Positions 8,937 through 28,246 of a DNA stretch of 64,000 nt are shown here, piece by piece; position 1 is the first letter of the stretch; every line of letters starts with the position of its first letter. The notes beneath the pieces were generated by a model that saw nothing but the letters and a program-made list of their open reading frames with translations, was not told the DNA's origin and did not search any database. The translations under genes and the position numbers were made by a program. The stretch is from the NCBI GenBank assembly GCA_945865565.1, contig CAMBEK010000001.1, forward strand, positions 62,001 through 126,000. Reading direction: 5' to 3'. This DNA comes from Pseudobacteriovorax antillogorgiicola. GTDB lineage: Bacteria; Bdellovibrionota_B; Oligoflexia; Oligoflexales; RGVZ01.

Positions 8937-9920
8937 GTGTCACAAAAACATCTTTTCATCGCCGACCCGTTGGAAGGGCTGAATTTGCCGCTGGATTCCT
9001 CGCTGCGGATGGCCAGAGCCCTTGCCGCCCGCGGACACCGGGTCTTTTTCACGACCATCCAGGATCTAAGTTGGAGGTCGGACAAGGGTGCTGCCTCGGC
9101 CCGAAGCGTGGAGGCCACTTTTGCCGGCGAGGGCCTCAGACCAGCGCTCTCCGCCAAGGGCTTGCACAGTTTGTCTGAATTCCAGGCAATCCACATGCGC
9201 AAGGATCCCCCCTTTGACATGGCCTACATTGAGGCCACCTGGCTCCTTGATTCAGTGGCCTCAAAGGTCCACATTTATAACCATCCGGAGGCCCTGCGGA
9301 ACTTCAACGAAAAGGTCTCCATCTTGATGTTCCCCAACGACATTCGGCCAGCCCTCGTCAGCTCTGACACTGCCGAAATCATTGATTTTATTGCAAAAGA
9401 TTGTGCCGGAGATGCCGTCATCAAGCCCCTTGCCCTGTTTGGCGGACGCGGGGTGGAGCGGATCTGTATCGGTCCGAAGGGTCTGGAAATGGGCGAGGCC
9501 GCAAAACGAATCACCAAGGTTACCGGCGATGGCCGCGAAAAACGCATCGTGCAGCCGTTTGACGAACGGGTTTTTTCCGGCGAAGTCCGGGCGTTCTGCA
9601 TGGGGGGAGAGCCCATCGCCTGGTGCCTGAAAAAACCGGCGCCCGGGGAATTTCTGGCCAACACTCGAGCCGGAGCAACTTTGGAGTCCTACAAACCGGG
9701 CGCCGAGGAGCTCGCCCGCGTCAAGAATGTTGCTTCGCGTCTGGCCTTAATGGGTGTCCAAGTGGTTGGGTTTGACCTGATCGGGGGCTACATTTCTGAA
9801 ATCAACCTGACGAGTCCCCGCCTTTTACTGCCGGCCGGGGATGTAGCCACAGAGCAAGCCGTCTATGAACGGCTTGCCCTGTGGCTGGAGCGGGATGCGG
9901 GAAAGGCGATGAGTCCCTAG
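8937..9920 (+). CDS. gshB: Glutathione synthetase-like ATP-grasp protein
   Basis: The 327-aa protein begins KHLFIADPLEGLNL, close to the GshB N-terminus. It has an ATP-grasp core with AVIKPLALFGGRGV near 160-175, RIVQPFDERVFSGEVRAF and the C-terminal VGFDLIGGYISEINLTSP, which carries metal-binding Glu and Asn. GshB ligates glycine to gamma-glutamylcysteine. The GDKR motif of typical GshB is GEVR here, so another gamma-glutamyl or amino-acid ligase activity is possible. The start is a GTG with a strong GGAAGGGG site 8-9 nt upstream, preferred over codons further upstream. Its end overlaps the next convergent gene by 4 nt. Confidence 0.8.
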   Translation: MSQKHLFIADPLEGLNLPLDSSLRMARALAARGHRVFFTTIQDLSWRSDKGAASARSVEATFAGEGLRPALSAKGLHSLSEFQAIHMRKDPPFDMAYIEATWLLDSVASKVHIYNHPEALRNFNEKVSILMFPNDIRPALVSSDTAEIIDFIAKDCAGDAVIKPLALFGGRGVERICIGPKGLEMGEAAKRITKVTGDGREKRIVQPFDERVFSGEVRAFCMGGEPIAWCLKKPAPGEFLANTRAGATLESYKPGAEELARVKNVASRLALMGVQVVGFDLIGGYISEINLTSPRLLLPAGDVATEQAVYERLALWLERDAGKAMSP

Positions 9921-10303
9921 ATACACTGTTGGATGTCACGCCCTGCAAGGCGGTTAAGGATCACCACATCCAAGGCAGACTTTCTAGCAACGACCCTGTT
10001 CTTAAAAACTTCGACCTGGGCCTCTTCGACCTTCATGGTCGCATAATCTCGCTTGTACTCGTCCATGGTGATGGCTTGTTTTGCCAAAAGCCTGTTGGAA
10101 GTCTCGAAATTATGTAGCGCTAATGCATATTTGGCCTCTTGTGCGATCAACTCGCTGTTTGCCTCGTCCAATTTGGATTGATACATCACAACGAATGGAT
10201 CGTTATTGATGTCGGAATCGTCTGCCATCAGCGGCTGATTCATTCCGGTCAACAGCAGCACCGCCACAATAAAGTTTGCAAACAGGATCTTTGATACCTT
10301 CAT
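9917..10303 (-). CDS. Small secreted helical (coiled-coil) protein, unknown function
   Basis: This 128-aa protein has a signal peptide (ILFANFIVAVLLLTG) followed by an almost fully helical region, residues 35-120, rich in Glu, Lys and Ala with heptad-like spacing. The segment resembles the hairpin coiled coils of periplasmic adaptor or TolC-like proteins, but it is too short to be either. The ATG at 10303 is chosen because GAGGGG lies about 8 nt upstream; an ATG two codons earlier abuts that site. The first seven residues (MKVSKIL) echo those of the next gene (MQVSKIL). It is the last gene of the minus-strand cluster that begins with the glycosidase-like gene. No function is assigned. Confidence 0.7.
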   Translation of the reverse strand: MKVSKILFANFIVAVLLLTGMNQPLMADDSDINNDPFVVMYQSKLDEANSELIAQEAKYALALHNFETSNRLLAKQAITMDEYKRDYATMKVEEAQVEVFKNRVVARKSALDVVILNRLAGRDIQQCI

Positions 10304-10340
10304 TGCCATCCCCTCAATCTTCTTTGTCCAACTTTACAAA

Positions 10341-11759
10341 TCAGCGAACAATCCGGGTCAGTGTTTGAGCGAAAATTTTCTCAACACCGATGCGAGCCCA
10401 ACGTCCTTGAGCCACCAACTGCTCCTGACCCATGCTGGATTCGACAGATTCCTGCATCGTGTATTCGGCGACACCAAAGTTCTTGCCGTTGGCGATGGCC
10501 ACGACGATTTGGTCGCCAGTGCGAATGGCGATGCCTTTGAAGGTGAATTCCTGAACCTTAAAGGACATGTCATAGGTTTCGCCCTTGGCAACAACTTCGA
10601 CGGTGCCCTGCATTGAACCAAGAGCCTCGGTCTGGGCCGTAAAATTGAACTTGCCTGTCATCGCATCCAGGGACATTTCTGGAATGCTGACGGAACCTTG
10701 ATCAGGATTGGAGGAACCATTGAGCATGGTGCCCACCATTCCGCCCTGCTGTGCTGATTCAAGGGTGGCGATGCCAATGTCTTGGCCCCTGACGTTCCAA
10801 GCCGCAAGGAGTCTTCCGGCAACCAAAACCGCCGGACCAGCAAACTGAGTCTGTCCAAGATTGACACCCAATTGAAGGTACTGACCCATTGAACTGATGG
10901 TCATCTTACCAGTCTGAGCCTCATGGCCACTGAAGATCGAAGCCCATTCACCCTTGAATTCGTTGGGAATGAGCCATTCAATCCAAAGCGGTGCCAGCTG
11001 CTTGCTGACTTCGATGTTTTTTCCCTGGGAGAAGAAAAAGTGCATTTGCTCGCGTCCGTCCTGGGTTTTCACCAGAGCCGCGGCGACACTTTTCTGGCCT
11101 TCCTGGGTGCTGATGTCGCTAAAATACAAGATCGGCTTCGCAATGCTCTGATCGGTAACCTGAGCCGGGTAACGCCAAGCGTTGGCCAATTGCATTTGTC
11201 CAACCTGAGCAATCCCAGGCATCGCAATGCTTGCTTCCTGACTTACTTCCAGTTGGGTGGCATCGCCGGTTGCCTGACCAACAGGCGCCATACCGATTTC
11301 TTGGGAAGGCGAAGAATAAAGCGAAAGACGCTTCACTTGATTTTTGGCTTCGTAGGTCTGCAGTTCAGACCATTGTTCGACGCTCAATCCAGAAACCCAG
11401 AGTCCCTGATTGTTTTCAAAAAGGAGCTTGTCGTTCGTCAAGACGATCGCCGAGTAGCGCGGCGCCCCGTCGCTGGATTCCAGACCCAATTTCTGAGCCG
11501 ACTGAATCTCTCCGCCTTGCGTTGCAACAAAACGGTCGTACGCCACACCCTGTTTTTCCAGGGCTTCCGTGGCTAATGCGATGCCCTGATCTGCGGCCAA
11601 ATTGTCCGTCGCCGAAACAATCAGAACCCGCTGCTGCGATGCGCCCTGGCGAGATTCGCTGGCTGAACGTGGGACGTCATCACGTCCCATGGCTGGCAAA
11701 CCGGCACCAAGACCGGCGGCAAAAAGAACAGATCTCGACAGTATTTTGGAAACTTGCAT
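10341..11759 (-). CDS. Secreted protein with Agd3-type N-terminal region and no deacetylase domain
   Basis: The 472-aa protein has a signal peptide cleaved near residue 25. Residues about 43-270 align with residues about 115-345 of the CE18-like deacetylase at 16619-18838. Both begin with an S-A-T strand (VLIVSATDN against LLLLSATRS). Both have a Y-x-x-I-x-L core leading to LWVSGLSVEQWSELQTYE, against TWLSSLTMDQWAQLREYE, and end with LAPLWIEW against VAPLWINW. The deacetylase DD and HxxxH motifs are absent. In place of the catalytic domain are beta-rich segments with repeated starts (FKGEW, MTGKFNF), possibly two small barrels. The N-terminal part of Agd3 is a carbohydrate-binding module in fungi, so I infer polymer binding. 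GGAGAAG precedes the ATG. Confidence 0.75.
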   Translation of the reverse strand: MQVSKILSRSVLFAAGLGAGLPAMGRDDVPRSASESRQGASQQRVLIVSATDNLAADQGIALATEALEKQGVAYDRFVATQGGEIQSAQKLGLESSDGAPRYSAIVLTNDKLLFENNQGLWVSGLSVEQWSELQTYEAKNQVKRLSLYSSPSQEIGMAPVGQATGDATQLEVSQEASIAMPGIAQVGQMQLANAWRYPAQVTDQSIAKPILYFSDISTQEGQKSVAAALVKTQDGREQMHFFFSQGKNIEVSKQLAPLWIEWLIPNEFKGEWASIFSGHEAQTGKMTISSMGQYLQLGVNLGQTQFAGPAVLVAGRLLAAWNVRGQDIGIATLESAQQGGMVGTMLNGSSNPDQGSVSIPEMSLDAMTGKFNFTAQTEALGSMQGTVEVVAKGETYDMSFKVQEFTFKGIAIRTGDQIVVAIANGKNFGVAEYTMQESVESSMGQEQLVAQGRWARIGVEKIFAQTLTRIVR

Positions 11760-13370: not shown

Positions 13371-14645
13371 GTGATTGAAAAGAACATGAGCCAACTTTTG
13401 CCGGTCGATGTCGCAATCTATGTTGAAGGGACGTACCCATTCCAGATCGGCGGGGTCTCTTCTGCCATCCATGGGATCATCGAAGGATTGCCGGATGTCA
13501 GGTTTGGGATCGTCCACTTGGCGTGGACCACTGAAACGACAGGCGAAATGCAATATCCGCGACCGGGAAATCTGGCATGGATAAAAATCATCAGGCTTGG
13601 AAAATTCATCAATGCCTTCGCTGACCTAGTGGGTGAAGCTTATCCCGTGGCCAAGGTGCATCATTCCCATACTTGCGGACTTGCGGGCCTCGCCGCAACC
13701 TTCGCCAAGGATCAACATCCGGGCAGCCGCATGATCCTCAGTGAGCACAGCCTTTACGTGCGTGATGTGCTTCAGGCCTTGGAGAAGGCTGGCTGCAGCC
13801 ACAAGGCGGGACAGGACCTGATCGCTGCGAATGAGGTTCCACCCATCGGTGCTGGCCAGGGAACCCTCAATGAAATGAAAGAGGCGGTGCTGGCCACGGG
13901 GAGGCAAGTGTATGAAAATGCAGACACCATGACCTATCTCTACTCCAGCATCAGAACGGAGGCGCTTCAATACGGTGCAGACATGACTCGCTCCATGATC
14001 ATCCCAAACTCCGTCGATTCGCAAAGATTTGAAAGCGTCTCCCAAAAAAACAAGACAGCCCATGGGGCCTGGCAGTTGGCAGTCATTGGCAGGGTGGTCC
14101 CGGTGAAGGGAATTATTGAGGCCATCGAATGTGCGCGAAAACTGGCTGACAGGGGCTTTGACTTTGAACTGAACATCATCGGCCCCGAAAACGAAGTGCC
14201 TTGCTACGCCGCCTTTTGCCGTGAAAAGGTTGCCCACTTTGGCCTTGAAAACCGTGTCATCTTTAAGCCTAGCATGTCGCCAGAAAAAGCCCTGGAAGGC
14301 ATCGATCTGTTGTTGCTGACGAGTCAGTCAGAGGCCATGCCCCTTGTGGTGCTCGAGGCCATGGCGGCATCGGTTCCCGTGGTGGCCCATGATGTCGGAA
14401 ATGTAGGCGACCTGCTTGGCTCGAATTCGCGAAGCGAAACCACCAGTGCCCCGGCCGGAATCATCGCACCATCGGGTGCGAATCAAAGAAATCCGACGCC
14501 GGCCGAACTAGCTGGCGTCGTCATCGACGTCTTGGGAAACGAAGGGTCCTACCGCGCCATGCGCGCCGCGGGCCCCCAAAGGGTAAAACAATTCTTTGAC
14601 AGGACCGAAGCCTCCAAGGCATGGAAAGCCCTGTATTCCGCCTAA
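13371..14645 (+). CDS. PelF-like GT4 glycosyltransferase (short form)
   Basis: The 424-aa cytosolic protein has the two-lobed GT-B fold of GT4. The PelF-like N-terminus reads VEGTYPFQIGGVSSAIHGII, the linker has ILSEHSLYVRD, the C-lobe starts AVIGRVVPVKGI, and the EX7E motif is present as EAMPLVVLE. It is clearly paralogous to the second PelF-like gene at 22463 (both have a HLAW strand after the first Rossmann turn and a similar C-lobe), but lacks about 110 residues in the first lobe. PelF polymerises UDP-GalNAc in Pel synthesis, so I infer a related hexosamine transfer. The start is GTG with GGGAG upstream; ATG at 13386 is an alternative. The 3' end overlaps the convergent periplasmic gene by 4 nt. 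Confidence 0.85.
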   Translation: MIEKNMSQLLPVDVAIYVEGTYPFQIGGVSSAIHGIIEGLPDVRFGIVHLAWTTETTGEMQYPRPGNLAWIKIIRLGKFINAFADLVGEAYPVAKVHHSHTCGLAGLAATFAKDQHPGSRMILSEHSLYVRDVLQALEKAGCSHKAGQDLIAANEVPPIGAGQGTLNEMKEAVLATGRQVYENADTMTYLYSSIRTEALQYGADMTRSMIIPNSVDSQRFESVSQKNKTAHGAWQLAVIGRVVPVKGIIEAIECARKLADRGFDFELNIIGPENEVPCYAAFCREKVAHFGLENRVIFKPSMSPEKALEGIDLLLLTSQSEAMPLVVLEAMAASVPVVAHDVGNVGDLLGSNSRSETTSAPAGIIAPSGANQRNPTPAELAGVVIDVLGNEGSYRAMRAAGPQRVKQFFDRTEASKAWKALYSA

Positions 14646-16459
14646 TTGTCGGACGAATCGTCCGACACTTTGACGAAGGTGACATCAACCGGATTGCGGC
14701 GACCACCAATAATGTATTGGCCGGTGATTTCGCCGCGTTCAAGTTGCCCCCGAACCTGAAAGAATACCGTTCGTTGACGGCTAGTTAGGTATATGACGCC
14801 TGTTTCAAGGTCGAGATAAACTAAATCAAGTGTCACAAGGTGCTTCTGGATCTTGGGACTGATCATGATGCTGGCGACGTGAGATTTACCATTGCGGGAA
14901 ATTTTAAGTGACGCATCGTAACCAAGAAATTTCCCCTCGTAGCTTCCTTCAAAATCCGAGAACGACATCGGATCAACATTTTGGGCGATCAGATAATTCT
15001 TAATGGAATTCACCCGTCTCCCTGAAAAATTTTGCTCCCGGTGCCCAATCCTCAGAATACCTTTCACAATCAAGTCATCAGAACCTGCCGGACCAGAAGA
15101 AATCCGAAACATCGCGTGCTGCACAGGAATGTCCTGCTGACCCGTTGTAGAGTCACTTAGAGTCGCCGTTTCCTGAACGCTGGTGGCGTGAATTATTCCT
15201 GTGGACCGATCGAAGCTGCTGTAGGCCATCGATGCTGTTATATGCCCGTAGCCCGCCGCCACAATAACCCCCATGGTGTCTGGGCGGGCCACTGAAAAGA
15301 CGCCTGGTCGGCCTTCTATCTCAATTTCGTAAATACCTTCCAGATCCTTTTCGTTAACCATAGCGCCAAGATCGAAGTGATCGGCCAAAGATCGCATCAC
15401 TTTCTCTTGGGACGGCATTCCGTAAGCACCGTACCGTGCTGACAAGTCCCCGGCAATTTCAGCGAGGAATCTAAACTGAGACGGCTTTTGTCGAGCCAGA
15501 TCGAGAGCACGAAAGCTGGCTCCAAGCGCGTCAAAATGATTCGGGTCCATAATCGACATGGCTTTCTTGCCCACCTCAACTTCAAGAGACCCGCCGGTGT
15601 CAATCAGCTTCAGGATAATCAAAGAAACAATCGTCCCTGGTCGCATGGCGACCTCTTCGGGAACATGCCCTGGCAACTGGTCCAACCGCAACTTCGTCAA
15701 GACCAACATCTGGGCAATCTTTGAGAGCAGCGTCTGGTCCTTTTGAAGGTATACTGAACGATTAAACGATTCAAAGGCACTCTGGCAGACCATCGGGCCG
15801 TGAACACCACTCAAGAATTTTTCATAGTCCGCCACCGTCAATTCGCCCAAATAGTTCTCGATCAATGTCTGATGCAATCGGGCCTGAACCCTCGAAAAAT
15901 CATCCGTCGATGGAAACGGGGCCTTGGTCAAAGGTAACGGCTTGTTCAAGGCTTCGATGATTTTCCCCATCCGATCGAACATCGAATAAATCTCCTTGAT
16001 CCCGCTCGCACGCGATGCAATCTTTTCCTGATTCAAGTTGAATTTCATGCGGGTAAGGTCCTGGGACCAACGGGCAAATTCGATCAGAAGCCAGTCAGGA
16101 TCATCCGCAATACTCAGCAGAGGCTCAATTGCCACGGTCATCTTGTCTGCCAAGTCCGTAATCATATCAATGTCCAGCGAACTGAACTTCAGCTCAACCT
16201 GAATTTCAAGGAGCTCGTCGAGAATCTTGAGATAGGGACCTAATTTTTCTTTCGACATGTCAGGGACTGAAGACCGCAACTCAAAAATCACGTCACTCAT
16301 CTCGCTGCGACTAACCCTAGCGCGTTCGATAACAGCCTCTGGTGAAGGCACAATTTCTTGCGCAGTAAGTGGCAAAGCTAGGGAAAAAAATGCTGTGCAG
16401 GTGAACCCCGCGATTTGCATCAAATGGTAGATCGGCTTTAAAAAAGTTCGCACTTTCAT
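14642..16459 (-). CDS. Large secreted protein with helical N-terminal half and beta-rich C-terminal half, unknown
   Basis: The product is about 605 aa and starts with a signal peptide (TCTAFFSLALPLTA). Residues about 35-375 are mostly helical. The last 230 residues are beta-rich and contain two similar openings, LEGIYEIEIEGRPGVF and FEGSYEGKFLGYDASL, each followed by alternating strands, like small lipocalin or avidin-like barrels. The beta segments of the gene at 10341 start in the same way (FKGEWASIFSGHEA), so a shared domain is possible. No catalytic motif is seen. The start is uncertain: ATG at 16459 has GAAGGA directly against it, and the frame is open upstream to 16783. It is divergent from the deacetylase gene and lies inside the polysaccharide locus. 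Confidence 0.65.
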   Translation of the reverse strand: MKVRTFLKPIYHLMQIAGFTCTAFFSLALPLTAQEIVPSPEAVIERARVSRSEMSDVIFELRSSVPDMSKEKLGPYLKILDELLEIQVELKFSSLDIDMITDLADKMTVAIEPLLSIADDPDWLLIEFARWSQDLTRMKFNLNQEKIASRASGIKEIYSMFDRMGKIIEALNKPLPLTKAPFPSTDDFSRVQARLHQTLIENYLGELTVADYEKFLSGVHGPMVCQSAFESFNRSVYLQKDQTLLSKIAQMLVLTKLRLDQLPGHVPEEVAMRPGTIVSLIILKLIDTGGSLEVEVGKKAMSIMDPNHFDALGASFRALDLARQKPSQFRFLAEIAGDLSARYGAYGMPSQEKVMRSLADHFDLGAMVNEKDLEGIYEIEIEGRPGVFSVARPDTMGVIVAAGYGHITASMAYSSFDRSTGIIHATSVQETATLSDSTTGQQDIPVQHAMFRISSGPAGSDDLIVKGILRIGHREQNFSGRRVNSIKNYLIAQNVDPMSFSDFEGSYEGKFLGYDASLKISRNGKSHVASIMISPKIQKHLVTLDLVYLDLETGVIYLTSRQRTVFFQVRGQLERGEITGQYIIGGRRNPVDVTFVKVSDDSSDN

Positions 16460-18842: not shown

Positions 18843-20312
18843 ATGACCCAGCACAAAGTTCCCCTCATGATTTATTTTCTATCTGCAGTTCTGCTTCATT
18901 CGGGAGTCTGCTTTGCCCAAGCCATACCAGGCGCGGGGCGTGGTGCATTTCTTGAAAATTGTCTTGCGGGCGACAGCAAGCCCGACGTCATGCACACCGT
19001 GCGAGTCATCATGAAAGCCGTTGGCGCTAACGACTGCGAAGGTGCAAACCGAATCCTGAGCAAGACCAAGGAGCTGATTATCACGTCCAGTGAAATTTCA
19101 GACCTGACGCCGATTGCGGATCTCACTCACTTGGAAGTTCTTTCCATTGACGATAATGCAGTGCATGATCTTTCGCCCCTTCTCGGACTCACCGAGCTGA
19201 AAGGCCTTTCCATCATTCGAAATCATGTCGCGAATCTGTCAGGACTTGCGAACTCAACCAAACTTGAATGGCTTTTCCTTCAAGACAACAATGCGCCGGC
19301 CCTTGATTTGTTGCCACTCCATGCCATGACCAGGATGCAAATTTTAGATGTCTCAAGAAACTCTGTTGGTTCCGTTTCTGCCTTATCGACCATGAAAGGT
19401 CTGCGAAGCCTCATTGCAAATCAGGCGAAGATTTCCGACATCTCTCCACTTGAGGAGCTGGAGACGCTAACGAGCGTCTCACTTGGGTTAAACGAAATAG
19501 GCGATATTCGTCCCTTGAATCGATCGTCTCGCCTGGAACGGATTCATATGCGAGAAAATCGTGTCGCCGACTTGAGCGTGCTGGCATCTCTGCCTCAACT
19601 TCGCGAGATTGATTTTTCAGGAAATCTCCTCAAAGACTTGAGTCCGGTTTCAGGCCAGGATTTTCTCAGCAATATAGACATTTCCAACAACGGCATCGAA
19701 TCCCTCTCGTTTATTGAAACATTGCCCAGACTTCAATGGTTGAAGGCCGGTGGCAACATCATCAAGGACCTCACACCACTCACGCAGTCCAGCGGTCTCC
19801 TGACTGTCCTGGACCTTTCAAGAAACAAAATTGTGGACCTCACGCCCCTCACAGGCATGAGGGAGATTGAGTGGCTTGATGTTTCTGGCAATCAAATTTC
19901 AGACATAACCACGATTGGTACCGTCCCTTTCTTGAAACGGCTCAACATCGCCAGAAACCAGATTCAAGATATTTCGGCACTCGCAAAGCATCCGACCCTC
20001 ATGATCCTCGACATGTCGGAAAATAAAATAGTCGACCTCTCGCCGATTGCCAAAAAGGCCCTGATGAAGAACTTGATCCTTTCGGGAAACGAAGTGGTTG
20101 ACGTTTCGCCTATCGGAACGCTGCGGGTGCTCAAGCACCTTGACCTTAGCCGAAACAAAGTTGAGGACTTGTCGCCCCTGCTTACCTTTGAAAATTCTGG
20201 GATGAAGGTTTTTACTGCGGAAGCCAATCCCATCATCAAAGACGACGCCCACTGCCCCAGGGAGGGCGGTTCCTATTTGATGCGCTTGTTTTGCCGTGAC
20301 TATTTAAAATAA
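18843..20312 (+). CDS. Secreted leucine-rich-repeat protein
   Basis: The 489-aa product has a signal peptide (LMIYFLSAVLLHSGVCFA) and about 16 leucine-rich repeats of 21-22 residues from about residue 70 to 465. They are of the SDS22/internalin type (for example LTHLEVLSIDDNAVHDLSPL and LKHLDLSRNKVEDLSPL). Cysteines flank the array on both sides (two near 45-65 and two near the end), possibly as capping disulfides. Such solenoids bind proteins or glycans; there is no enzyme motif. It starts 4 nt after the deacetylase stop, so the two are co-translated, and its role is probably tied to the exopolysaccharide or its surface assembly. The ATG at 18843 is chosen because it sits directly before the signal peptide. 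Confidence 0.85.
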   Translation: MTQHKVPLMIYFLSAVLLHSGVCFAQAIPGAGRGAFLENCLAGDSKPDVMHTVRVIMKAVGANDCEGANRILSKTKELIITSSEISDLTPIADLTHLEVLSIDDNAVHDLSPLLGLTELKGLSIIRNHVANLSGLANSTKLEWLFLQDNNAPALDLLPLHAMTRMQILDVSRNSVGSVSALSTMKGLRSLIANQAKISDISPLEELETLTSVSLGLNEIGDIRPLNRSSRLERIHMRENRVADLSVLASLPQLREIDFSGNLLKDLSPVSGQDFLSNIDISNNGIESLSFIETLPRLQWLKAGGNIIKDLTPLTQSSGLLTVLDLSRNKIVDLTPLTGMREIEWLDVSGNQISDITTIGTVPFLKRLNIARNQIQDISALAKHPTLMILDMSENKIVDLSPIAKKALMKNLILSGNEVVDVSPIGTLRVLKHLDLSRNKVEDLSPLLTFENSGMKVFTAEANPIIKDDAHCPREGGSYLMRLFCRDYLK

Positions 20313-20351
20313 TCGCGAATTTCAGCTGATTCATGCCAGAAAGGGTCTGCA

Positions 20352-21542
20352 ATGAGTTTATTGTCCCACGTGCCGAATTTCGATGTGAAACACCTGCTTG
20401 ACCGGCCCCTGAAGGCGATCGATGAGGCCATGGTCCGGAATTATTTTCTCGGGAAAACGGTCCTCGTCTCGGGGGCTGGAGGCAGCATCGGATCTGAAAT
20501 TTGCATGCAGGTCGCCAGGTTCGGAGCACGTAAATTGATCATGGTCGAATCGTGTGAATTCAACCTTTATCAAATTGATCTTAAAATCCGCGAATCGGGA
20601 ATTGCTGAAAATTCAGCAATTGAAATCCACAGCATCTTGGAGTCTGTGACCCACCGCACTGCGATCCGCAGGATCTTCAAGCGGCACCGGCCTGATACGG
20701 TTCTTCACGCTGCTGCGTTCAAGCACGTACCCCTAGTGGAATGTAATCCCATCTCGGGAATTAAGAATAATCTAACCAGCACCATGATCCTTGCGGAGGC
20801 CGCACTCGATTTTAAAGCCTCTGCATTCCTGTTGATCAGCTCGGACAAGGCTGTGAATCCCACGAATATCATGGGATTAACCAAACGATGCTGCGAACTG
20901 GTGATCCAATCCATGGACCGCGCCCACCCTGGGCGGGTCCGTTTCATGGCGGTCCGGTTCGGCAACGTATTGGCAAGTTCAGGCAGCGTCATCCCACGCT
21001 TTCTCGCCCAGATTCAAAATGGTGGACCCGTCACGGTGACGCACCGGAATGTGACCCGGTTTTTTATGATCATCAGTGAAGCCGTAGGTCTCGTGCTTCA
21101 ATCGGTTGCCATGGCCTCAGGCGGAGAGATCTTTGTTCTCAATATGGGGCAACCCGTTCTGATTAAAGAACTTGCCGAGCAAGTTATCAGGTGTGCTGGC
21201 CTGGAACCGCATAAAGAGATCAAAATAGAATTCACCGGTCTTCGCCCCGGTGAAAAACTCTACGAGGAGTTGATCCTGGAGGGTGATGAAAAGGCCACAA
21301 CCCACGGCGATATCTTCGTCGCAATCCCAAAGGCCATCGATCACGGGGAGGTTCTTGCTTCTCTCCGGCATCTTCTTGATCTTGCAGAAAGCGAAGACGC
21401 AGAGCCTTGTTTGAGCGCCCTACGCGAGATTGTCTTTGGTGGCCGGGAGGAAGCCATGACGGCCATCATGCAGAATGCTCAAAGGATGCGGGTATCAGGT
21501 CTGGTATCTGAAAATGCTGGGTCAAGTAAGCTGGCAAGCTGA
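20352..21542 (+). CDS. Soluble UDP-N-acetylglucosamine 4,6-dehydratase-like protein (PglF/CapD family)
   Basis: The 396-aa protein is a short-chain dehydrogenase-type enzyme with VLVSGAGGSIGSE (NAD binding, about 36-48), LHAAAFKHVPLVE, SSDKAVNPTNIMGLTKR (Met takes the usual catalytic Tyr position, as in PglF/CapD), MAVRFGNVLASSGSVIP and FTGLRPGEKLYEEL. It lacks the four-helix membrane domain of PglF or WbpM, so it is the short soluble form. Members convert UDP-HexNAc to a 4-keto-6-deoxy sugar. Here it probably supplies or modifies a sugar nucleotide for the locus. GAAAGGG lies 7 nt before the ATG. The 3' end overlaps the convergent epimerase gene by 77 nt, and a hairpin follows the stop at 21554. 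Confidence 0.88.
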   Translation: MSLLSHVPNFDVKHLLDRPLKAIDEAMVRNYFLGKTVLVSGAGGSIGSEICMQVARFGARKLIMVESCEFNLYQIDLKIRESGIAENSAIEIHSILESVTHRTAIRRIFKRHRPDTVLHAAAFKHVPLVECNPISGIKNNLTSTMILAEAALDFKASAFLLISSDKAVNPTNIMGLTKRCCELVIQSMDRAHPGRVRFMAVRFGNVLASSGSVIPRFLAQIQNGGPVTVTHRNVTRFFMIISEAVGLVLQSVAMASGGEIFVLNMGQPVLIKELAEQVIRCAGLEPHKEIKIEFTGLRPGEKLYEELILEGDEKATTHGDIFVAIPKAIDHGEVLASLRHLLDLAESEDAEPCLSALREIVFGGREEAMTAIMQNAQRMRVSGLVSENAGSSKLAS

Positions 21543-22332
21543 TGAAGCCAGCTGGCAGGATCGTTGCGATCCTGCCGGGATTCGCGCAGCTATACTTCGG
21601 TCCCGGCCGAAGTGCATGCGTTATCCTTAATGCTGGGTTGACGCGTTGCATGGCCGACACAATGTCTGCGATCTGCACAGCCTCGCCGGTACCAACGTCG
21701 ATCTCCTTCCACGCCTGATCGAGCGTAGCCAAGGATACGATTGCCCGCGCGGCGTCAGCCACGTGAATGAAGTCACGCCATTCCTGACCGCCATTGTTCA
21801 AGATAAACGGGCTATCTGAACGAATGGCCTCGTCCAGGTGATGCAGAATCGAGAACCGGTCGTCGCCTCCGTACAGATTGAATACGCGGCACGTCACATG
21901 CTCAATTTTATTTGCGGCACAGAATGAGTCGATCATCATTTCGTTCAATTTTTTTATTTTTCCGTAGGGTGTCGCCGGGGGCTGGTTTGTGACTTGCCGT
22001 CCCTCCGCGTCCTCACCGTACACGGCACAGGTGCTGACATAGCAAAACCTGCTGATTCCATGCCTCTTTGCAGCCGTCAGAAGGCGGGCGGTCGTCATGA
22101 TGTTAGACTGCACCACCGACTCGGGATCAGAATCAACCCTTGCGGTCAGATCATAGGCACCATGGATGATCGTGTTTACTGGCCTGCCATTTCGATTTCC
22201 GCCGCTTGCTCCAGAACACAATCCGTCAAGGTCGGTCCAGTCCTCGCGATTGAGCTCGACGATCTCAAAATCTGACTGGGCCATGATCGCGCGGCCCAAA
22301 TTTCCCTTCGCCCCTGACAACAAAATCTTCAT
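21466..22332 (-). CDS. NAD-dependent epimerase/dehydratase (sugar-nucleotide SDR)
   Basis: The 288-aa extended SDR has ILLSGAKGNLGRAI at the N-terminus (GxxGxxG), VNTIIHGAYDL, CYVSTCAVYG (catalytic Ser/Thr) and TPYGKIKKLNE (Tyr-x3-Lys). A C-terminal substrate lobe includes VFNLYGGDDRFSIL and WRDFIHVADAARAI. This is the layout of GalE-type C4-epimerases. In Pel and galactosaminogalactan pathways such an enzyme makes UDP-GalNAc or UDP-Gal, and that is the inferred role. ATG at 22332 has GGAGG 5 nt upstream, which decides the start against a longer frame to 22413. It is divergent from the second PelF-like gene. Confidence 0.82.
   Translation of the reverse strand: MKILLSGAKGNLGRAIMAQSDFEIVELNREDWTDLDGLCSGASGGNRNGRPVNTIIHGAYDLTARVDSDPESVVQSNIMTTARLLTAAKRHGISRFCYVSTCAVYGEDAEGRQVTNQPPATPYGKIKKLNEMMIDSFCAANKIEHVTCRVFNLYGGDDRFSILHHLDEAIRSDSPFILNNGGQEWRDFIHVADAARAIVSLATLDQAWKEIDVGTGEAVQIADIVSAMQRVNPALRITHALRPGPKYSCANPGRIATILPAGFISLPAYLTQHFQIPDLIPASFEHSA
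21554..21576. terminator. Hairpin just past the dehydratase stop (possible terminator)
   Basis: Perfect 10-bp arms GGCAGGATCG and CGATCCTGCC enclose a TTG loop, 12 nt after the stop of the plus-strand operon. There is no U-tract, so a Rho-independent role is unsure. The sequence also codes for the end of the antisense epimerase gene. Confidence 0.4.
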
Positions 22333-22462
22333 GCGTGCCTCCGATGAGGTCGGGGTCAAAGCAAAAATGATTCCTGAATTGGGCTTTTTCGTTAGCCAAA
22401 ATTTACAGCTCAATCTGGTACGGAACGTGCAGCCGAATCAACTCACGGAGGAATTGCCCGGC

Positions 22463-24145
22463 ATGGATCCCAATCAAGAATCGGTCGACGTCGTGATGGT
22501 GACCGAGTGCGGATTTCCATACGTGAGGGGTGGAGTCGGGGGGGTTGTCAATCAAACGCTACGAGGCCTCCCCGAGACAACATTTGGCGTGATCCATTTG
22601 GCCTGGAACAAAAAGACAACCGATGCCAGACGGTACGAAATTCCTCCTAATGTAAAGTGGATTCAGGACATCTATTTATCGCCTGAGGAATTTGATCATG
22701 CGCCCCGCTGGATAAATCTCAGATTCCCATTTCGAAAGTCAGAAAGAATCCACAATGCATCGCTTGCACTGCGCTTCTTCGAATGGATCGATGAAGCAAT
22801 GAAGGGCAATTACGAGCCTCTTATTGATGCTTACTGGCGCTACATGAACCCGAAGACCAGAACCGTGGATCTTTGGCAGATGTTACGGTGTCCGGAATTC
22901 GTTGTGGAATTTGAATCCCGCATCGCAGACCTCGGAATGCCTCTGACCACAACCTTCTGGTTGATGGAAAACTTCCTTTCCATTACCCGAAATCTTTGCG
23001 GGCGCATTTATCCGGTGGGCCAGGTTTATCACTCCCAAACCCAACTGTACGCAGGCCTTGTCGCAGCACTTGGAGCCATGCAACACGGCCGGGAGATGAT
23101 TCTCACCGAGCATGGACTTAATGTTCGTGACAGCATCCACTACATCCGTGAGGCAGGCCACGGCGTTCCCCCAAAAGGACGACCGGGGGATCCAATCAAA
23201 GACGCTTGGGTTTCATGGTTTTGTGAACTTGGCAGATTTGTCTATGGGCAGGCCACGTTTGCCACCTATCAATACCAGCGCAACGTGGATGAGGCGGTTT
23301 CCCTAGGTCTGCCCAGGTCAAAAGTCGAAATGATCTCCAACGGAATTGTTCCCGAGGATTTCGCTGCAGCCCGCAAGCAACGTCATGTGGCAAACACGAT
23401 TCGCAGCGCTGTACTTGATGAAAGGCGTCTGGGGCATCTTTGGCGGCTCGCCTACGTTGGACGCATGATTCCTGCCAAGGGAATCCTTGATCTGATCGAG
23501 GCAGCAGGGATTTTGTTCAAGCAAGGAGATGTTCGTTTCGCACTTGATTTCATTGGTCCGGCGGAAGGGGTTGATGATTTTCTTGCAGAATGCAGAAAAG
23601 CCATTGCCGCAATTGGAATCGAGGAGATTGTCAGTTTCACGGGAACAAAGGATCTCACGCACGCCTTTGGCGTAGTGGATATCATGATCCTGCCAAGTCA
23701 CGCCGAGGCCCTGCCCATCGTGCTCCTGGAAGCGATGGCTTCCTCGGTTCCTATTGTGGCCACGGACGTCGGCAGCATCATGCAGGTGATTCATAACCCG
23801 GTGGCTTGCGAAGGTGAGTTCCGTGACTCCATTGGGCCTGCGGGCTTGGTAGTTCCCCCCATGAATCCCGTCGCGCTGGCAGATGCGATCTCACACCTTG
23901 TCTTGAATCGAGAGTTATATGAATCCTGCTGTGAAAATGGGCCTCTCCGAATTGCTCAAAATCACCGCGCCGAGGACATCATGCGGCAGTACCTGGAACT
24001 CTACCAATCCGTCGCCGAACGCCAAAATGCTGCGTATTCTGGCAATGAAGTTGCGCGCCTTGCGGGCAGCAGCACCCAAATCACGCCGAGAGCTGCTGCA
24101 ACAAAAGTAATGATGTTAAATAATTCGAAAGTCGGTTCAATCTGA
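22463..24145 (+). CDS. PelF-like GT4 glycosyltransferase (long form)
   Basis: The 560-aa cytosolic GT-B enzyme opens with MVTECGFPYVRGGVGGVVNQ, the PelF-type donor-lobe start. It continues with VYHSQTQLYAGLVAALGA, ILTEHGLNVRD, YVGRMIPAKGILDLIEA and the EX7E motif EALPIVLLE. The length is close to Pseudomonas PelF (about 500) and it carries the insert missing from the gene at 13371. PelF uses UDP-GalNAc to build the Pel polymer inside the cell; I infer the same kind of reaction. The start at 22463 has GGAGGA 10 nt upstream, although the frame is open from 22166. The last 145 nt are antisense to the end of the PelG-like gene, and the extra C-terminal tail (after YLELYQSV) lies in that overlap. 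Confidence 0.88.
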   Translation: MDPNQESVDVVMVTECGFPYVRGGVGGVVNQTLRGLPETTFGVIHLAWNKKTTDARRYEIPPNVKWIQDIYLSPEEFDHAPRWINLRFPFRKSERIHNASLALRFFEWIDEAMKGNYEPLIDAYWRYMNPKTRTVDLWQMLRCPEFVVEFESRIADLGMPLTTTFWLMENFLSITRNLCGRIYPVGQVYHSQTQLYAGLVAALGAMQHGREMILTEHGLNVRDSIHYIREAGHGVPPKGRPGDPIKDAWVSWFCELGRFVYGQATFATYQYQRNVDEAVSLGLPRSKVEMISNGIVPEDFAAARKQRHVANTIRSAVLDERRLGHLWRLAYVGRMIPAKGILDLIEAAGILFKQGDVRFALDFIGPAEGVDDFLAECRKAIAAIGIEEIVSFTGTKDLTHAFGVVDIMILPSHAEALPIVLLEAMASSVPIVATDVGSIMQVIHNPVACEGEFRDSIGPAGLVVPPMNPVALADAISHLVLNRELYESCCENGPLRIAQNHRAEDIMRQYLELYQSVAERQNAAYSGNEVARLAGSSTQITPRAAATKVMMLNNSKVGSI

Positions 24146-25752
24146 TCCTGGAAAAGAAAGGCGCCAAGAATCGCCATTTGTGCGATTACAAATCCGATGG
24201 CAGGACCCTCTGCGTTGAGCAGGTAAAGGTGGCATGCCAAAATAAATACCAGACTTGAAAGTCCTGACGAGTAGATGAGCATCCGGTACTGGTCAATCTC
24301 GCTGGGAAATTGCCAGGCAAAAATTCCAAGCGTGAATATCCAGGCAACTTGAACGGCAATAAATAACTCCAGACACATGCCAAGGAACATCATGGGAAGA
24401 ATTTTTCTTGTGGCCTGAAACACAGGGACGCTGCTTTCAGACATCGATCTAAACGCGATCGTCCACATCCTCGACATCCCTGGCGCCAATCGGAGGAAAT
24501 ACCAGTTGCAGAGGATGATCGCAGGCAGCGTGGCTGCAAGAAACTGGGTCGCATTGTGTCCACCGGTAGCCATTTCAGGGAAAACAAAAAGGATCAAGAT
24601 CTTGTCGCCCCAAAATATCGACCCGAGTACCAGGCCGCGTTTGATCTGGGCCCACTTCAAGACCGGGGAGCCTAACTTTAACCCGTCAGGATCTGCATTC
24701 CTTCCAAACATCCGGGCATCGGAAAAAAATGGCCCTGACAAAACCGCACATGCGGCCAATGGTGGAAGAAACCAAACCTCTGGCATCGCGGCTAGAACCA
24801 GAGCATACGCCGCCCACGCACCAATATAGAACTTGTGTTTTTGTTGGGCGAATATATGGACCATCATTAAGGCGAGCAAAAGATGCAGTACCGAAGACGT
24901 GATAAATTCAACTTGGAACCCGGAATCAGTTCCGATGGCGTGGGGCCTGGGGAGTAACACTCCCAATACTGCGGCGATAACGGCTCCTCCAATCATGGCC
25001 CACGGGATTCTCTTCATCAAACAATAGGCCGACCCCGCCAAACCCCGAATAAAAATGTCGTCACCCAGGGCCAAAGAGACTGGCATGATGATCACGTACG
25101 CCAGCCACGGCATGGTGGATCCAGAAGCAAGCCAAAGATCTATTACCGGTGTGCCACCAATACCAGCGCAGGCACCGCCATGGCATTTGGCGCCTCCCGC
25201 TGCGAAGGCAAAAGACACCAGGACTACGGCCATCAATTGAAGGCAGGTCGCCCTCCACCATCCAGAACTTAACGAATTCCCCTGCTGGCCTCCCGGCATT
25301 CCGGACAATTCCAACTTGAACCGGGTCGTGCGAAAACGGGAGTTCAAGGAGTCGACAAGCAGCAGGGCGGACTCGCGGCTGAAATTTGACGGAAGTAGCA
25401 GTGAAAAAATCCGTCGTCCCGATTCGTTGGTGAGGCTGAACCAGCTGCCCGCTTCTTCCCGAGGGTCAAAAGGCTTAGGATAATTCGCGACCACCAACTG
25501 ACCTGACCCGGGTGAACTGATCGTCATGGCTTGTCCCCGAAATCTTGCCTTTAGGGACTGGCCATCGTGGAGTGGCAGATGCGCATTTTTCTTCTCATAT
25601 TTGTCGGGATGCAAATCGAATTCCCGGCGCATTTCGCGGATGACTCCGCCGTTCAATGCGGCCTTTTGTTTAAGCAGACTCGGCCATAAAAAAAATTTTG
25701 CGAGTAACGCGGATAAAGCGAGCACTGCTGTGTGGAGCTGAAATTCTGTCAC
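24001..25752 (-). CDS. Polytopic membrane protein resembling PelG (polysaccharide transport)
   Basis: The protein of about 583 aa has one N-terminal membrane segment (ALSALLAKFFLW), a soluble region of about 130 residues, then about 9-11 further hydrophobic helices. The part around FWGDKILILFVFPE, then a stretch ending with LAATLPAIILCNWYFLRL, resembles the Wzx-like PelG family, which is predicted to move polymer across the inner membrane with PelF. Overall similarity is modest and the soluble insert is unlike PelG, so the call is tentative. The start is GTG 25752 with GGGA 5 nt upstream; an upstream TTG (25830) lacks such a site. The 3' end overlaps the PelF-like gene by 145 nt in a convergent arrangement. 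Confidence 0.6.
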   Translation of the reverse strand: MTEFQLHTAVLALSALLAKFFLWPSLLKQKAALNGGVIREMRREFDLHPDKYEKKNAHLPLHDGQSLKARFRGQAMTISSPGSGQLVVANYPKPFDPREEAGSWFSLTNESGRRIFSLLLPSNFSRESALLLVDSLNSRFRTTRFKLELSGMPGGQQGNSLSSGWWRATCLQLMAVVLVSFAFAAGGAKCHGGACAGIGGTPVIDLWLASGSTMPWLAYVIIMPVSLALGDDIFIRGLAGSAYCLMKRIPWAMIGGAVIAAVLGVLLPRPHAIGTDSGFQVEFITSSVLHLLLALMMVHIFAQQKHKFYIGAWAAYALVLAAMPEVWFLPPLAACAVLSGPFFSDARMFGRNADPDGLKLGSPVLKWAQIKRGLVLGSIFWGDKILILFVFPEMATGGHNATQFLAATLPAIILCNWYFLRLAPGMSRMWTIAFRSMSESSVPVFQATRKILPMMFLGMCLELFIAVQVAWIFTLGIFAWQFPSEIDQYRMLIYSSGLSSLVFILACHLYLLNAEGPAIGFVIAQMAILGAFLFQDQIEPTFELFNIITFVAAALGVIWVLLPARRATSLPEYAAFWRSATDW

Positions 25753-25931
25753 GAGAGTCCCATTCTGTTCACGCACGGGTCGAAAATTTTTAAGTGCAAG
25801 AACAGGGTCAACGGCAGGGATCTTGCACAAAAAGAATCAACTAAAGTTTCGCCGCCGGAATATCGAAGGACCGCTGCGACTGAAGTGTTGGCATTCGCCG
25901 GTTTTAAAATATTTCTTAGAGGAGAAACAAA

Positions 25932-27368
25932 ATGGTCAAAAGAATCTGGTGGGCATGGATACTCGCATCGACTGCGCTATCCACATTTCTTTTCAGCGCC
26001 TGTGGTGCTGAGAATCTTTCTTCCATGCGAAGGTCTGGTGCGAGTACAGCCGCTAACGGGTTGGATGCATCGGCGTCGATACAGACGATTGATCTGACAT
26101 CAACGGCTGTTACTACGCTGACCCCTTCATTGATTCAGGTAAAGCGTGGGACCGTGAGCAAGCAACCCCTGTCTGTCCTGGCAAAAAAGGAGCAATCTGG
26201 GACGGCCGACGACTGGAACACCTATCTTGAATTTACACCGGCAACCTCGGGATCTGCCGCCGTTTTTACGTTCAACCTGCCATCAACGGTCAATGTATCC
26301 AGCATCACGTCCATCAAAGTGTCTACCAATTACAAAGGCCCTGGCCTGAGCACACAGCAGTGGTCATTTCTTTTGTATGACTACACGGCTGCCAAATGGG
26401 TTTCCGTTGGCAATAATAGCCTGGCTGGCAACTGGACGTGGACGTCTTTTGATCTGGCGGGCAAGGGAATCCTGTCGCGTTTTGTGAATGCCACTAAAAA
26501 AATTAGCCTGCGTTACGAGACCTCTACTGCAGTGGACAGCAGTGACATTGATTACCTCGTGATCAACGTAGAGAGTGGTGTCAGCCCTTCTCCAACTCCT
26601 TCGCCGACACCGAGTCCGTCGGCATCTCCGACACCCACTCCAACGCCCCCGGTGAGCGGAGCATGGTGGAAGCCGATTCCGGGAATGAGCTGGCAGATGC
26701 AGTATAGCGGCACTATCGACACCAGCCTGAATGTCCAAATATACATGCTCGACATGTTTGGCACCTCGGCGACAACCATCAGTGCCTTGCAGGCACGGGG
26801 CGTGAAAGTTTTTTGCTACATCGACGGCGGGAGCTGGGAGAGCTACACGCCTGACGCGGCAAACTTTCCGGCTTCGATCATTGGCAAGGAAGTTGGAGGG
26901 TGGCCCGATGAAAAATGGCTCGACATCCGCAGCAAAACTTTGCTTTGGCCGATCATGCGCGCCCGGCTGGACCTGGCCAAACAAAAAGGCTGTGACGGCA
27001 TCTACCATGACTGGGCCGATAGCTACGCAGGAGACACGGGATTCCCCCTCACGGCTCAAGATCAGTTGGTCTACAACCGCGACTTCTGGGTGGTCGAGGC
27101 GCACGCTCGCGGACTGAGTGCTGGTCTGATCAATGATCTCGTTCAAGTCAAAGATCTTGTAACTTACTACGATTGGGCTGTGAACGAGCAGTGTGCGGAG
27201 TACGGCGAGTGCGCCTCCCTAAAGCCATTCATTGATGCCAACAAACCGGTATTCAGTCTGAATTACAGCGGAAATACATCAACAGTCTGCGCGGCTTTGA
27301 ACGCGCTGAATTTCGACGCAATCTTCAAAGATGTAAATTTGGGGGCGTATCGTTTGCCATGCAGATGA
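25932..27368 (+). CDS. Lipoprotein endo-alpha-1,4-polygalactosaminidase-like GH114 with beta-sandwich module
   Basis: The 478-aa protein has a lipoprotein signal (STFLFSACG, lipid Cys near residue 24). A Ser/Thr-rich beta-sandwich resembling a carbohydrate-binding module covers about 45-215, a Pro/Ser/Thr linker 218-240 and a GH114 TIM barrel 245-478. GH114 features are SWQMQYSG at the start, VFCYIDGGSWESY with a likely catalytic Asp298, GCDGIYHDWADS, and YDWAVNEQC with a likely catalytic Glu419. GH114 enzymes (fungal Ega3, bacterial polygalactosaminidases) cut alpha-1,4-galactosamine chains and favour deacetylated regions. In this locus it may trim or release the polymer. GAGGAGA lies 6 nt before the ATG. 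The barrel-type outer-membrane gene follows with a 10-nt overlap. Confidence 0.9.
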   Translation: MVKRIWWAWILASTALSTFLFSACGAENLSSMRRSGASTAANGLDASASIQTIDLTSTAVTTLTPSLIQVKRGTVSKQPLSVLAKKEQSGTADDWNTYLEFTPATSGSAAVFTFNLPSTVNVSSITSIKVSTNYKGPGLSTQQWSFLLYDYTAAKWVSVGNNSLAGNWTWTSFDLAGKGILSRFVNATKKISLRYETSTAVDSSDIDYLVINVESGVSPSPTPSPTPSPSASPTPTPTPPVSGAWWKPIPGMSWQMQYSGTIDTSLNVQIYMLDMFGTSATTISALQARGVKVFCYIDGGSWESYTPDAANFPASIIGKEVGGWPDEKWLDIRSKTLLWPIMRARLDLAKQKGCDGIYHDWADSYAGDTGFPLTAQDQLVYNRDFWVVEAHARGLSAGLINDLVQVKDLVTYYDWAVNEQCAEYGECASLKPFIDANKPVFSLNYSGNTSTVCAALNALNFDAIFKDVNLGAYRLPCR

Positions 27369-28246
27369 TGAAATCTAGTTCGCACGCAATTCGCTTTGTC
27401 AGGTTATGGATCCCCGTGGCCGGCGCCGTGAGTATCATCACCGCGAGCGTCGGCCATGGGGCCGCCACAGAAATCCAAGGAACAGTAGCCCGCCAGACCA
27501 CACGTGGAGAAGGCCGTGATGACTTTCAGGCCCTACGCATGGGAGCGACTTTTTCCGAAGGGGCTTATGGATTTTGGGGGTTCGTTGAAGGCCTGCACGA
27601 CGGCCATGGAGATCAGGCAACCTACGGCGAATTGGCCGGTGTCCGAAGCTTTGGCCACTGGTCATTGAGTGGGGCTGGGGCTGGCGGCACGGATCCAAGG
27701 CTTCGGCCATCCAACATGGTTGTAGCTGATTTAGCCCGGCGCATACCGGAACTCGCAACGAGCATTTACGCTGGATACACAAGAAGCGCTTATGACAGCA
27801 GCGTTCAATCCAGTGATTCGTCGATCTACCGGTTCTACAGAGTGGGCGCCGTGGTGGCTTTCCCCCCGGACTGGAACCTCAACGTTTCCGTTCAACGAAT
27901 CCAAAGAGAGATACTGGGAAATTCAGGAGGGCGGCGAGGCTCGGCCGGTGGACTTTCCCTGACCCGATCTTCCGGAGATCACCGGATCGGGGCAAGTTTG
28001 GCGGCATCGTGTCTGGCCCTTACGGTTTTTTGTCGCGGTGGATCTTTGGAGCGCTACGCAGAATTTTTTATGGACGGGCGCATTGCTCTTGCGCCGCAAT
28101 ACGGATTGATTGGGCGTATGGGCTTTATCAATCAATCAAGTGGCGCGATTGCACCCCCGACGGAAGGATTAACAGAACTGGCGAGCATCCAAAAACCAGA
28201 CACCCGCAGGACTCAGATCTGGTTGGGCGGTTACCGCAAGCTCTGA
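27359..28246 (+). CDS. Probable outer-membrane beta-barrel protein (YaiO-like)
   Basis: The 295-aa protein has a signal peptide ending near HGAA (residue 36). Amphipathic strands follow, alternating with Gly and Asp turns (FQALRMGATFSEGAYGFWGF, ATSIYAGYTRSAY, YRFYRVGAVVAF, YGLIGRMGFI), with aromatic residues at strand ends. The C-terminus is IWLGGYRKL, without a classic terminal Phe. The pattern resembles YaiO-type outer-membrane barrels. As it overlaps the GH114 gene by 10 nt, it is probably co-translated and may help exported polymer or its hydrolase at the outer membrane. Start candidates are ATG 27359, 27365 and 27368. The barrel call rests on strand pattern only. Confidence 0.55.
   Translation: MQMMKSSSHAIRFVRLWIPVAGAVSIITASVGHGAATEIQGTVARQTTRGEGRDDFQALRMGATFSEGAYGFWGFVEGLHDGHGDQATYGELAGVRSFGHWSLSGAGAGGTDPRLRPSNMVVADLARRIPELATSIYAGYTRSAYDSSVQSSDSSIYRFYRVGAVVAFPPDWNLNVSVQRIQREILGNSGGRRGSAGGLSLTRSSGDHRIGASLAASCLALTVFCRGGSLERYAEFFMDGRIALAPQYGLIGRMGFINQSSGAIAPPTEGLTELASIQKPDTRRTQIWLGGYRKL

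What the first reader, a model, noticed from the sequence alone, without database searches (positions are those of the whole stretch)
9917..28246. Exopolysaccharide locus joining Pel-type synthesis with fungal galactosaminogalactan-type enzymes
Within 18 kb lie two PelF-like GT4 enzymes, a PelG-like membrane protein, a C4-epimerase-like SDR, a CE18/Agd3-like deacetylase, a GH114 (Ega3-like) lipoprotein and a second TIM-barrel glycosidase candidate. In the fungus Aspergillus the galactosaminogalactan cluster has an epimerase, a GT4 protein, a CE18 deacetylase, a GH114 and a GH135 hydrolase, so the set of functions matches. Canonical PelA, PelB, PelC, PelD and PelE were not recognised. I infer a bacterial pathway for a cationic galactosamine-rich polymer that is neither standard Pel nor PNAG.
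Basis: partly seen in the sequence, partly recalled or inferred. Interest (0 to 1): 0.92.

Follow-up and report, generated by a model that had tools for sequence, protein, structure and literature searches.

The report
Bacterial galactosaminogalactan-like polysaccharide island
An uncultured Oligoflexia bacterium carries an 18-kb, 13-gene island that very likely makes a partly deacetylated, positively charged sugar polymer with a mix of Pel-type and Aspergillus-type enzymes; such mixed sets are already known in other bacteria, but here the deacetylase is unusually close to the fungal one and several parts differ.

Summary
The Agd3-like protein has every CE18 catalytic residue plus CBM87; GH114 keeps both catalytic acids; both GT4 proteins pass the PelF cut-off; a GHL15 TIM-barrel and a CBM87-only protein are present. 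All 13 genes are syntenic in a second MAG of the genus and partly in a third; in a fourth, gshB and asparaginase are adjacent (empty site). It is a discrete island under purifying selection.

Corrections: the 'C4-epimerase' at 20352 is a PglF/WbpM-type UDP-GlcNAc 4,6-dehydratase with a second SDR beside it. 'PelG' shows no detectable kinship to PelG; it matches only a membrane protein in a PelF/GHL15 cluster on a Paenarthrobacter plasmid. GH135 is absent.

Novelty is limited: bacterial clusters with a glycosyltransferase, membrane protein, agd3 and GH114 were published in 2020, and I re-found them on Deinococcus, Streptomyces, Kocuria and Thermus plasmids. New here: a separate PelF/exporter/GHL15 lineage, a CBM87-only partner, and an Agd3 that groups with the fungal enzyme (support 100/99; alternatives rejected, p 0.003) in a small sample, which bears on the proposed bacterial origin of the fungal cluster. 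Polymer chemistry is inferred.

The parts
9917..10309 (-). small secreted/periplasmic protein, 130 aa, function unknown
   Evidence: ORF; no credible Pfam; ortholog 69% in G003, 95% in G001
10341..11759 (-). CBM87-only protein, 472 aa: Agd3-type carbohydrate-binding module without deacetylase domain, plus C-terminal region of unknown kind
   Evidence: PF25116 113 bits; matches 6NWZ CBM only; one of two CBM87 in the genome; no aligned catalytic residues
11824..13293 (-). GHL15 TIM-barrel glycoside hydrolase-like protein with hydrophobic N-terminal anchor/signal
   Evidence: PF14885 74 bits; found only in the island-bearing genomes of the phylum sample
13371..14645 (+). PelF-like GT4 glycosyltransferase 1 (424 aa)
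   Evidence: NF038011 209 bits, DUF3492; own clade
14642..16459 (-). secreted protein of unknown function, about 605 aa
   Evidence: no Pfam/NCBIfam/plasmid match; 46% ortholog in G003; start inferred, ORF open to 16783
16619..18838 (+). Agd3-like (CE18) carbohydrate deacetylase with CBM87, probable lipoprotein
   Evidence: PF25115 214 bits, PF25116 112 bits; 6NWZ E 8e-53; D377, D378, H510, H514, R613, M666, H668 conserved
18846..20312 (+). secreted leucine-rich-repeat protein
   Evidence: LRR_4 E 4.6e-45; 50% ortholog
20352..21542 (+). soluble WbpM/PglF-type UDP-GlcNAc 4,6-dehydratase
   Evidence: PF02719 363 bits; PDB 5bju-type WlaL E 4.5e-86; SDK...Mx3K motif
21466..22335 (-). second SDR, C4-epimerase or 4-keto-reductase type; 77-nt convergent overlap with the dehydratase
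   Evidence: PF01370; galE model 66 bits, cut-off 262; best solved hit 6wjb
22463..24145 (+). PelF-like GT4 glycosyltransferase 2
   Evidence: NF038011 199 bits; best plasmid match Paenarthrobacter PelF-like protein E 8e-82
24001..25830 (-). polytopic membrane protein (about 12 hydrophobic segments, with a soluble region near the N-terminus), candidate polymer exporter; 145-nt convergent overlap with PelF2
   Evidence: hydropathy; match to Paenarthrobacter membrane protein beside PelF; no PelG family match
25932..27368 (+). GH114 endo-alpha-1,4-polygalactosaminidase-like lipoprotein with GH114_assoc domain
   Evidence: PF03537 242 bits, PF14741 121 bits; Ega3 6OJ1 E 5e-46; catalytic D and E conserved
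27359..28246 (+). secreted 295-aa protein, possible outer-membrane beta-barrel (unproven)
   Evidence: no family; AF2 model unusable, pLDDT 28.5; 58% ortholog

Best explanation
The 18.3-kb island makes, exports and remodels a partially de-N-acetylated amino-sugar exopolysaccharide of the Pel/galactosaminogalactan class. Inferred order: UDP-HexNAc precursors come from housekeeping GalE plus the island's dehydratase/SDR pair; the two PelF-type GT4 enzymes polymerise on the cytoplasmic side; the 12-span protein passes the chain through the inner membrane; the Agd3-like lipoprotein, perhaps helped by the CBM87-only protein, removes acetyl groups and makes the chain cationic; GH114 (and GHL15) cut or remodel it; an unidentified outer-membrane factor, perhaps the 27359-28246 product, lets it out. 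Shown: the gene set, catalytic residues, synteny, purifying selection and the island/empty-site structure. Inferred: the polymer, the order of steps, the exporter and the sugar identity (GalNAc/GalN most likely, possibly with a 6-deoxy-HexNAc such as FucNAc or QuiNAc).
For: CE18 + CBM87 with all catalytic residues (residue roles from PMC7229062); GH114 with both acids; two PelF above the NCBIfam cut-off; dehydratase with WbpM/PglF motif. All 13 genes syntenic in G003, left part in G001, empty site in G002. pN below pS in every island gene. Linked pelF-membrane protein-agd3-GH114 clusters, several with SDRs, on Deinococcus, Streptomyces, Kocuria and Thermus plasmids; a linked PelF-membrane protein-GHL15-GalE cluster on a Paenarthrobacter plasmid.
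Against: No chemistry or expression data. Genes are on both strands in turn, so they are not one operon. The exporter is not demonstrably PelG, and canonical Pel outer-membrane proteins were not recognised. The two AF2 models were unusable. The CBM87 ligand residues W292, W344 and D242 of Agd3 are F, F and A here, so ligand preference may differ. 4,6-dehydratase pairs also serve O-antigen and glycoprotein pathways.
Confidence: 0.72

Rival explanations
1. The island mainly makes a 6-deoxy amino-sugar polymer (FucNAc/QuiNAc rich) rather than a GalNAc/GalN polymer: the PglF/WbpM-type enzyme and the second SDR produce UDP-FucNAc or UDP-QuiNAc, and Agd3/GH114 are adapted to that backbone.
For: The dehydratase is unambiguous. 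Deinococcus and Streptomyces agd3 clusters also carry a 4,6-dehydratase-type SDR (LegB model, 454-468 bits, just under the 475 cut-off) and an NTP-transferase, unlike the fungal cluster with Uge3. CBM ligand residues are substituted.
Against: Genome-encoded GalE could supply UDP-GalNAc. The Paenarthrobacter PelF/GHL15 cluster has a true GalE and the Kocuria agd3 cluster lists no SDR at all. The second SDR's solved relatives include C4-epimerases.
Confidence: 0.3
2. A degradation/foraging locus: the GH114, GHL15 and CE18 proteins let the bacterium digest Pel or galactosaminogalactan made by other bacteria or fungi.
For: Three secreted polymer-acting enzymes and an extra CBM87 protein.
Against: Two conserved glycosyltransferases, nucleotide-sugar enzymes and a membrane protein in the same conserved block; no sugar uptake or sugar catabolism genes recognised within it.
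Confidence: 0.1
3. An O-antigen, capsule or protein-glycosylation locus that happens to include polymer-active enzymes.
For: WbpM/PglF-type dehydratase plus SDR is typical of such loci (and general knowledge).
Against: No Wzx/Wzy, initiating phosphoglycosyl transferase, ligase or PglB family recognised in the block; both GTs are PelF type; CE18 and GH114 are tied to exopolysaccharides.
Confidence: 0.08

Closest known systems
Bacterial agd3-containing exopolysaccharide clusters (Bamford et al. 2020, PMC7229062; e.g. Deinococcus sp. QL22, D. ficus, Streptomyces californicus, Kocuria rosea plasmids)
   Same: CE18/CBM87-type deacetylase, GH114, PelF-type GT4 and a polytopic membrane protein linked together, in several with a 4,6-dehydratase-type SDR
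   Different: Here two PelF paralogs of another PelF clade, an exporter candidate unlike theirs, GHL15 and no spherulin-4/GH135, an extra CBM87-only protein, an LRR protein, mixed gene orientation, PglF/WbpM-type dehydratase instead of LegB type
Paenarthrobacter aurescens TC1 pTC2 cluster (PelF-like, membrane protein, GHL15, GalE)
   Same: Same PelF clade (100/100), the only match of the exporter candidate (E 4e-8), GHL15 next to the PelF gene
   Different: No CE18, CBM87 or GH114 recognised among the cluster genes tested; canonical GalE present
Aspergillus fumigatus galactosaminogalactan cluster (uge3, gtb3, agd3, ega3, sph3)
   Same: Agd3 27-30% identical and closest in the sample; Ega3-type GH114 (E 5e-46); a glycosyltransferase
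   Different: No GH135, no Uge3-type epimerase in the island; GT and exporter candidate are separate proteins
Pel (pelABCDEFG) of Pseudomonas
   Same: PelF-type GT4; deacetylase and glycosidase functions
   Different: Deacetylase is CE18, not the PelA type (CE21, PMC12022489); no PelG, and no other Pel component recognised in the block; PelFs outside the canonical pel clade

Membership tests
CE18 (Agd3) | Catalytic motifs CM1-CM4: D377, D378, H510, H514, R613, M666, H668 | tested here: met
   all identical in the window and G003 proteins
CE18 (Agd3) | N-terminal CBM87 followed by CE domain | tested here: met
   PF25116 and PF25115
CE18 (Agd3) | metal-dependent deacetylation of alpha-1,4-GalNAc | not testable with these tools
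   needs enzyme assay
GH114 | family profile and the two catalytic acids (D189/E247 of Ega3 by recollection and alignment numbering) | tested here: met
   242 bits; D and E aligned; source paper not held
GH114 | hydrolysis of alpha-1,4-galactosaminan | not testable with these tools
   needs assay
Pel system | PelF glycosyltransferase | tested here: met
   two proteins over NF038011 cut-off, but outside the canonical pel clade
Pel system | PelG transporter | tested here: not met
   no PF16933 match in the genome (controls rang); hhalign negative on shallow profiles
Pel system | PelD c-di-GMP receptor | tested here: inconclusive
   no hit, but no control rang either
Pel system | PelA, PelB, PelC, PelE | tested here: inconclusive
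   none recognised by Pfam/NCBIfam among the island proteins scanned; genome not searched for them
GAG cluster | agd3 and ega3 homologs linked to a GT | tested here: met
GAG cluster | sph3 (GH135/spherulin-4) | tested here: not met
   no such Pfam match in the block; GHL15 instead
GAG cluster | Uge3-type C4-epimerase | tested here: inconclusive
   one SDR is a 4,6-dehydratase; the other scores 66 bits against galE (cut-off 262); a true GalE lies elsewhere
Bacterial agd3 clusters (Bamford 2020) | agd3 with a cytoplasmic GT, a multi-spanning membrane protein and usually GH114 | tested here: met
   for the definition; here

The most novel reading that the evidence does not exclude
The Oligoflexia island descends from the bacterial lineage closest to the source of the fungal galactosaminogalactan deacetylase: its Agd3 is sister to the fungal enzyme to the exclusion of other sampled bacteria, in both domains independently, and the island combines this with a separate PelF/exporter/GHL15 module. 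That would make the proposed bacterial origin of the fungal cluster directly testable.
Probability: 0.25. Interest if true: 0.75.

Novelty: new variant of a known kind. Interest (0 to 1): 0.48.

Why it matters
It adds Bdellovibrionota to the groups with a Pel/GAG-like polymer locus and suggests that the synthesis module (PelF, exporter) and the modification module (Agd3, GH114) can be swapped between lineages. Its Agd3 is the nearest bacterial relative of the fungal virulence-linked deacetylase in the sample, which bears on the suggestion (PMC4817252, PMC7229062) that the fungal cluster came from bacteria. GHL15 and the CBM87-only protein are concrete, uncharacterised proteins to test as polymer hydrolase and polymer-binding partner.

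Tried and rejected
PelG identity of the membrane protein: rejected as a homology claim (Pfam, genome search, hhalign against canonical PelG and against Deinococcus/Streptomyces exporters all negative). The alignments were shallow, so very remote kinship is not excluded. AF2 of the exporter candidate (pLDDT 36) and of the 295-aa protein (pLDDT 28.5) were unusable, so no fold search was run on them. The genome-contig scan returned only the already known G003 contig (peptide patterns too specific). The plasmid search with GHL15 found nothing, although a GHL15 gene turned up beside the Paenarthrobacter PelF. A fungal-specific GH114 affinity was considered and rejected: other bacterial GH114s are equally close (up to 47% identity; unresolved fork). 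MAG contamination was rejected: same block at the same chromosomal site in separate assemblies, plus an empty site. The PelD search had no working control. Taking a plasmid locus as search centre was not possible.
Full report
WHAT IS THERE. Thirteen genes fill 9917-28246. Pfam and NCBIfam confirm two PelF-type GT4 proteins, an Agd3-type protein with CBM87 and the Agd3 deacetylase domain, a GH114 protein with its associated N-terminal domain, and a GHL15 TIM-barrel protein. The Agd3-like protein matches solved Agd3 (6NWZ) at E 8e-53. All residues that the Agd3 paper (PMC7229062) ties to catalysis (D377, D378, H510, H514, R613, M666, H668) are present, while the CBM residues D242, W292 and W344 are A, F and F (the R613 row used a wrong column and is replaced). 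The GH114 protein matches Ega3 at E 5e-46 and keeps both acids that align with Ega3's catalytic pair (the numbering D189/E247 is from memory, the paper was not held).

TWO LABELS TO CORRECT. The SDR at 20352 is a Polysacc_synt_2 enzyme closest to PDB 'WlaL' entries 5BJU-5BJY (WlaL is the older name of Campylobacter PglF, from my own knowledge). It carries SDK...Mx3K, the pattern the dehydratase review gives as TDK...Mx3K for WbpM/PglF UDP-GlcNAc 4,6-dehydratases (PMC8987622); the first position is S here instead of T. The second SDR (21466-22335) has the GxxGxxG and YxxxK motifs but only 66 bits against galE (cut-off 262). Its best solved relative is 6WJB (from memory this is the Pel-linked epimerase PelX), so it may be a C4-epimerase or a 4-keto reductase. 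A true GalE is elsewhere in the genome. The 'PelG-like' protein has about 12 hydrophobic segments but no PelG signal by Pfam, genome search or profile comparison. Its single outside match is a Paenarthrobacter plasmid membrane protein (E 4e-8) whose neighbours are a PelF-like GT4, a GHL15 protein and GalE.

IT IS A DISCRETE, CONSERVED ISLAND. In a second MAG of the genus (G003; public record titled Pseudobacteriovorax antillogorgiicola isolate; Oligoflexia, Bdellovibrionota) all 13 genes occur in the same order and orientation, between the same neighbours. In G001 the left part is present at about 89-97% and the contig ends inside the block. In G002 gshB and asparaginase are adjacent with about 74 bp between them: an empty site. 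Agd3 is found in only 2 of 58 genomes of the phylum sample, GHL15 only in the three island-bearing genomes, and DUF3492 (PelF) in G000, G003 and one short fragment elsewhere. Island genes are under purifying selection (pN 0.19-0.44, pS 0.66-0.83). At fourfold sites most island genes tested differ more (0.59-0.74; one small gene 0.37) than most flanking genes (0.45-0.56; one short gene 0.63). This fits an older or exchanged history for the island, but housekeeping codon bias could add to it. The genes lie on both strands in turn, with convergent overlaps (145 nt between PelF2 and the exporter candidate, 77 nt between the two SDRs), so this is not a single operon.

HOW IT COMPARES. Bamford et al. 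2020 (PMC7229062) already reported bacterial agd3 homologs in operons with a glycosyltransferase, a multi-span membrane protein and GH114, some with spherulin-4, and Gram-negative ones with Pel outer-membrane genes. I found such clusters on plasmids of Deinococcus, Thermus, Streptomyces and Kocuria, where the set is flanked by two copies of one transposase. So the joining of Pel-type and GAG-type enzymes is a known kind. Differences here: both PelFs belong with the Paenarthrobacter protein in a clade (100/100) apart from canonical pel PelFs and from the agd3-operon PelFs of Deinococcota/Actinomycetota; the exporter candidate follows the same affinity; GHL15 is present and GH135 is not; there is a CBM87-only protein; and the dehydratase is of PglF/WbpM type where Deinococcus and Streptomyces have a LegB-type SDR.

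THE FUNGAL LINK. The window Agd3 and its G003 ortholog are mutual closest matches with fungal Agd3 in this sample: 205-226 bits against 66-98 for other bacteria versus the fungal protein, and 27-30% identity. They form a clade with it (100/99). The CBM87 part alone (97/96) and the CE part alone (100/98) give the same result. Trees placing Burkholderia Agd3 with either side to the exclusion of the other are rejected (p-AU 0.0026). Limits: one fungal sequence, assembled from printed stretches of 6NWZ; about ten bacterial sequences, mostly from plasmids; no root; long branches; the test groups were named after the tree was seen. GH114 shows no such specific link. I therefore give the shared-origin idea 25%.

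MECHANISM. Most likely: precursor supply, polymerisation by PelF-type enzymes, passage through the 12-span protein, deacetylation by Agd3 outside the cytoplasm, trimming by GH114 and GHL15, and release through an outer-membrane factor not yet identified. Gene functions by family and catalytic residues are shown; the order, the exporter, the outer-membrane step and the sugar are inferred. GalNAc/GalN is the default from the known specificity of Agd3 and GH114; the dehydratase makes a 6-deoxy-HexNAc component a serious alternative.

VERDICT. The remaining interest is in the swapped synthesis module, the uncharacterised GHL15 and CBM87-only proteins, and the fungal-like deacetylase.

Noticed in passing
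window 24001-24145, 21466-21542: Convergent genes overlap by 145 nt (PelF2/exporter candidate) and 77 nt (dehydratase/second SDR); overlaps of 145 and 71 nt are present in G003 although the proteins are only 38-70% identical.
   Followed up: partly
window 9917-28246 against L006/L007: Most island genes are more divergent at fourfold sites (0.59-0.74) than most flanking genes (0.45-0.56), suggesting an older or recombined history of the island relative to the chromosome.
   Followed up: partly
L050 4815-13883 (Kocuria rosea plasmid): A compact agd3-pelF-membrane protein-spherulin-4-GH114 set flanked by two copies of the same transposase on a mobilizable plasmid: a possible mobile galactosaminogalactan-like cassette.
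   Followed up: no
L030 8571-16919 (Paenarthrobacter aurescens pTC2): A PelF-like/membrane protein/GHL15/GalE cluster with no CE18, CBM87 or GH114 recognised, on a conjugative plasmid; possibly an uncharacterised polysaccharide system with GHL15 as its hydrolase.
   Followed up: partly
window 10341-11759 and 14642-16459: C-terminal regions of both proteins seem, by eye, to hold similar repeated small beta domains; not tested.
   Followed up: no
window 18846-20312: Secreted leucine-rich-repeat protein inside the polysaccharide island, conserved in G003 at 50%; role unknown.
   Followed up: no
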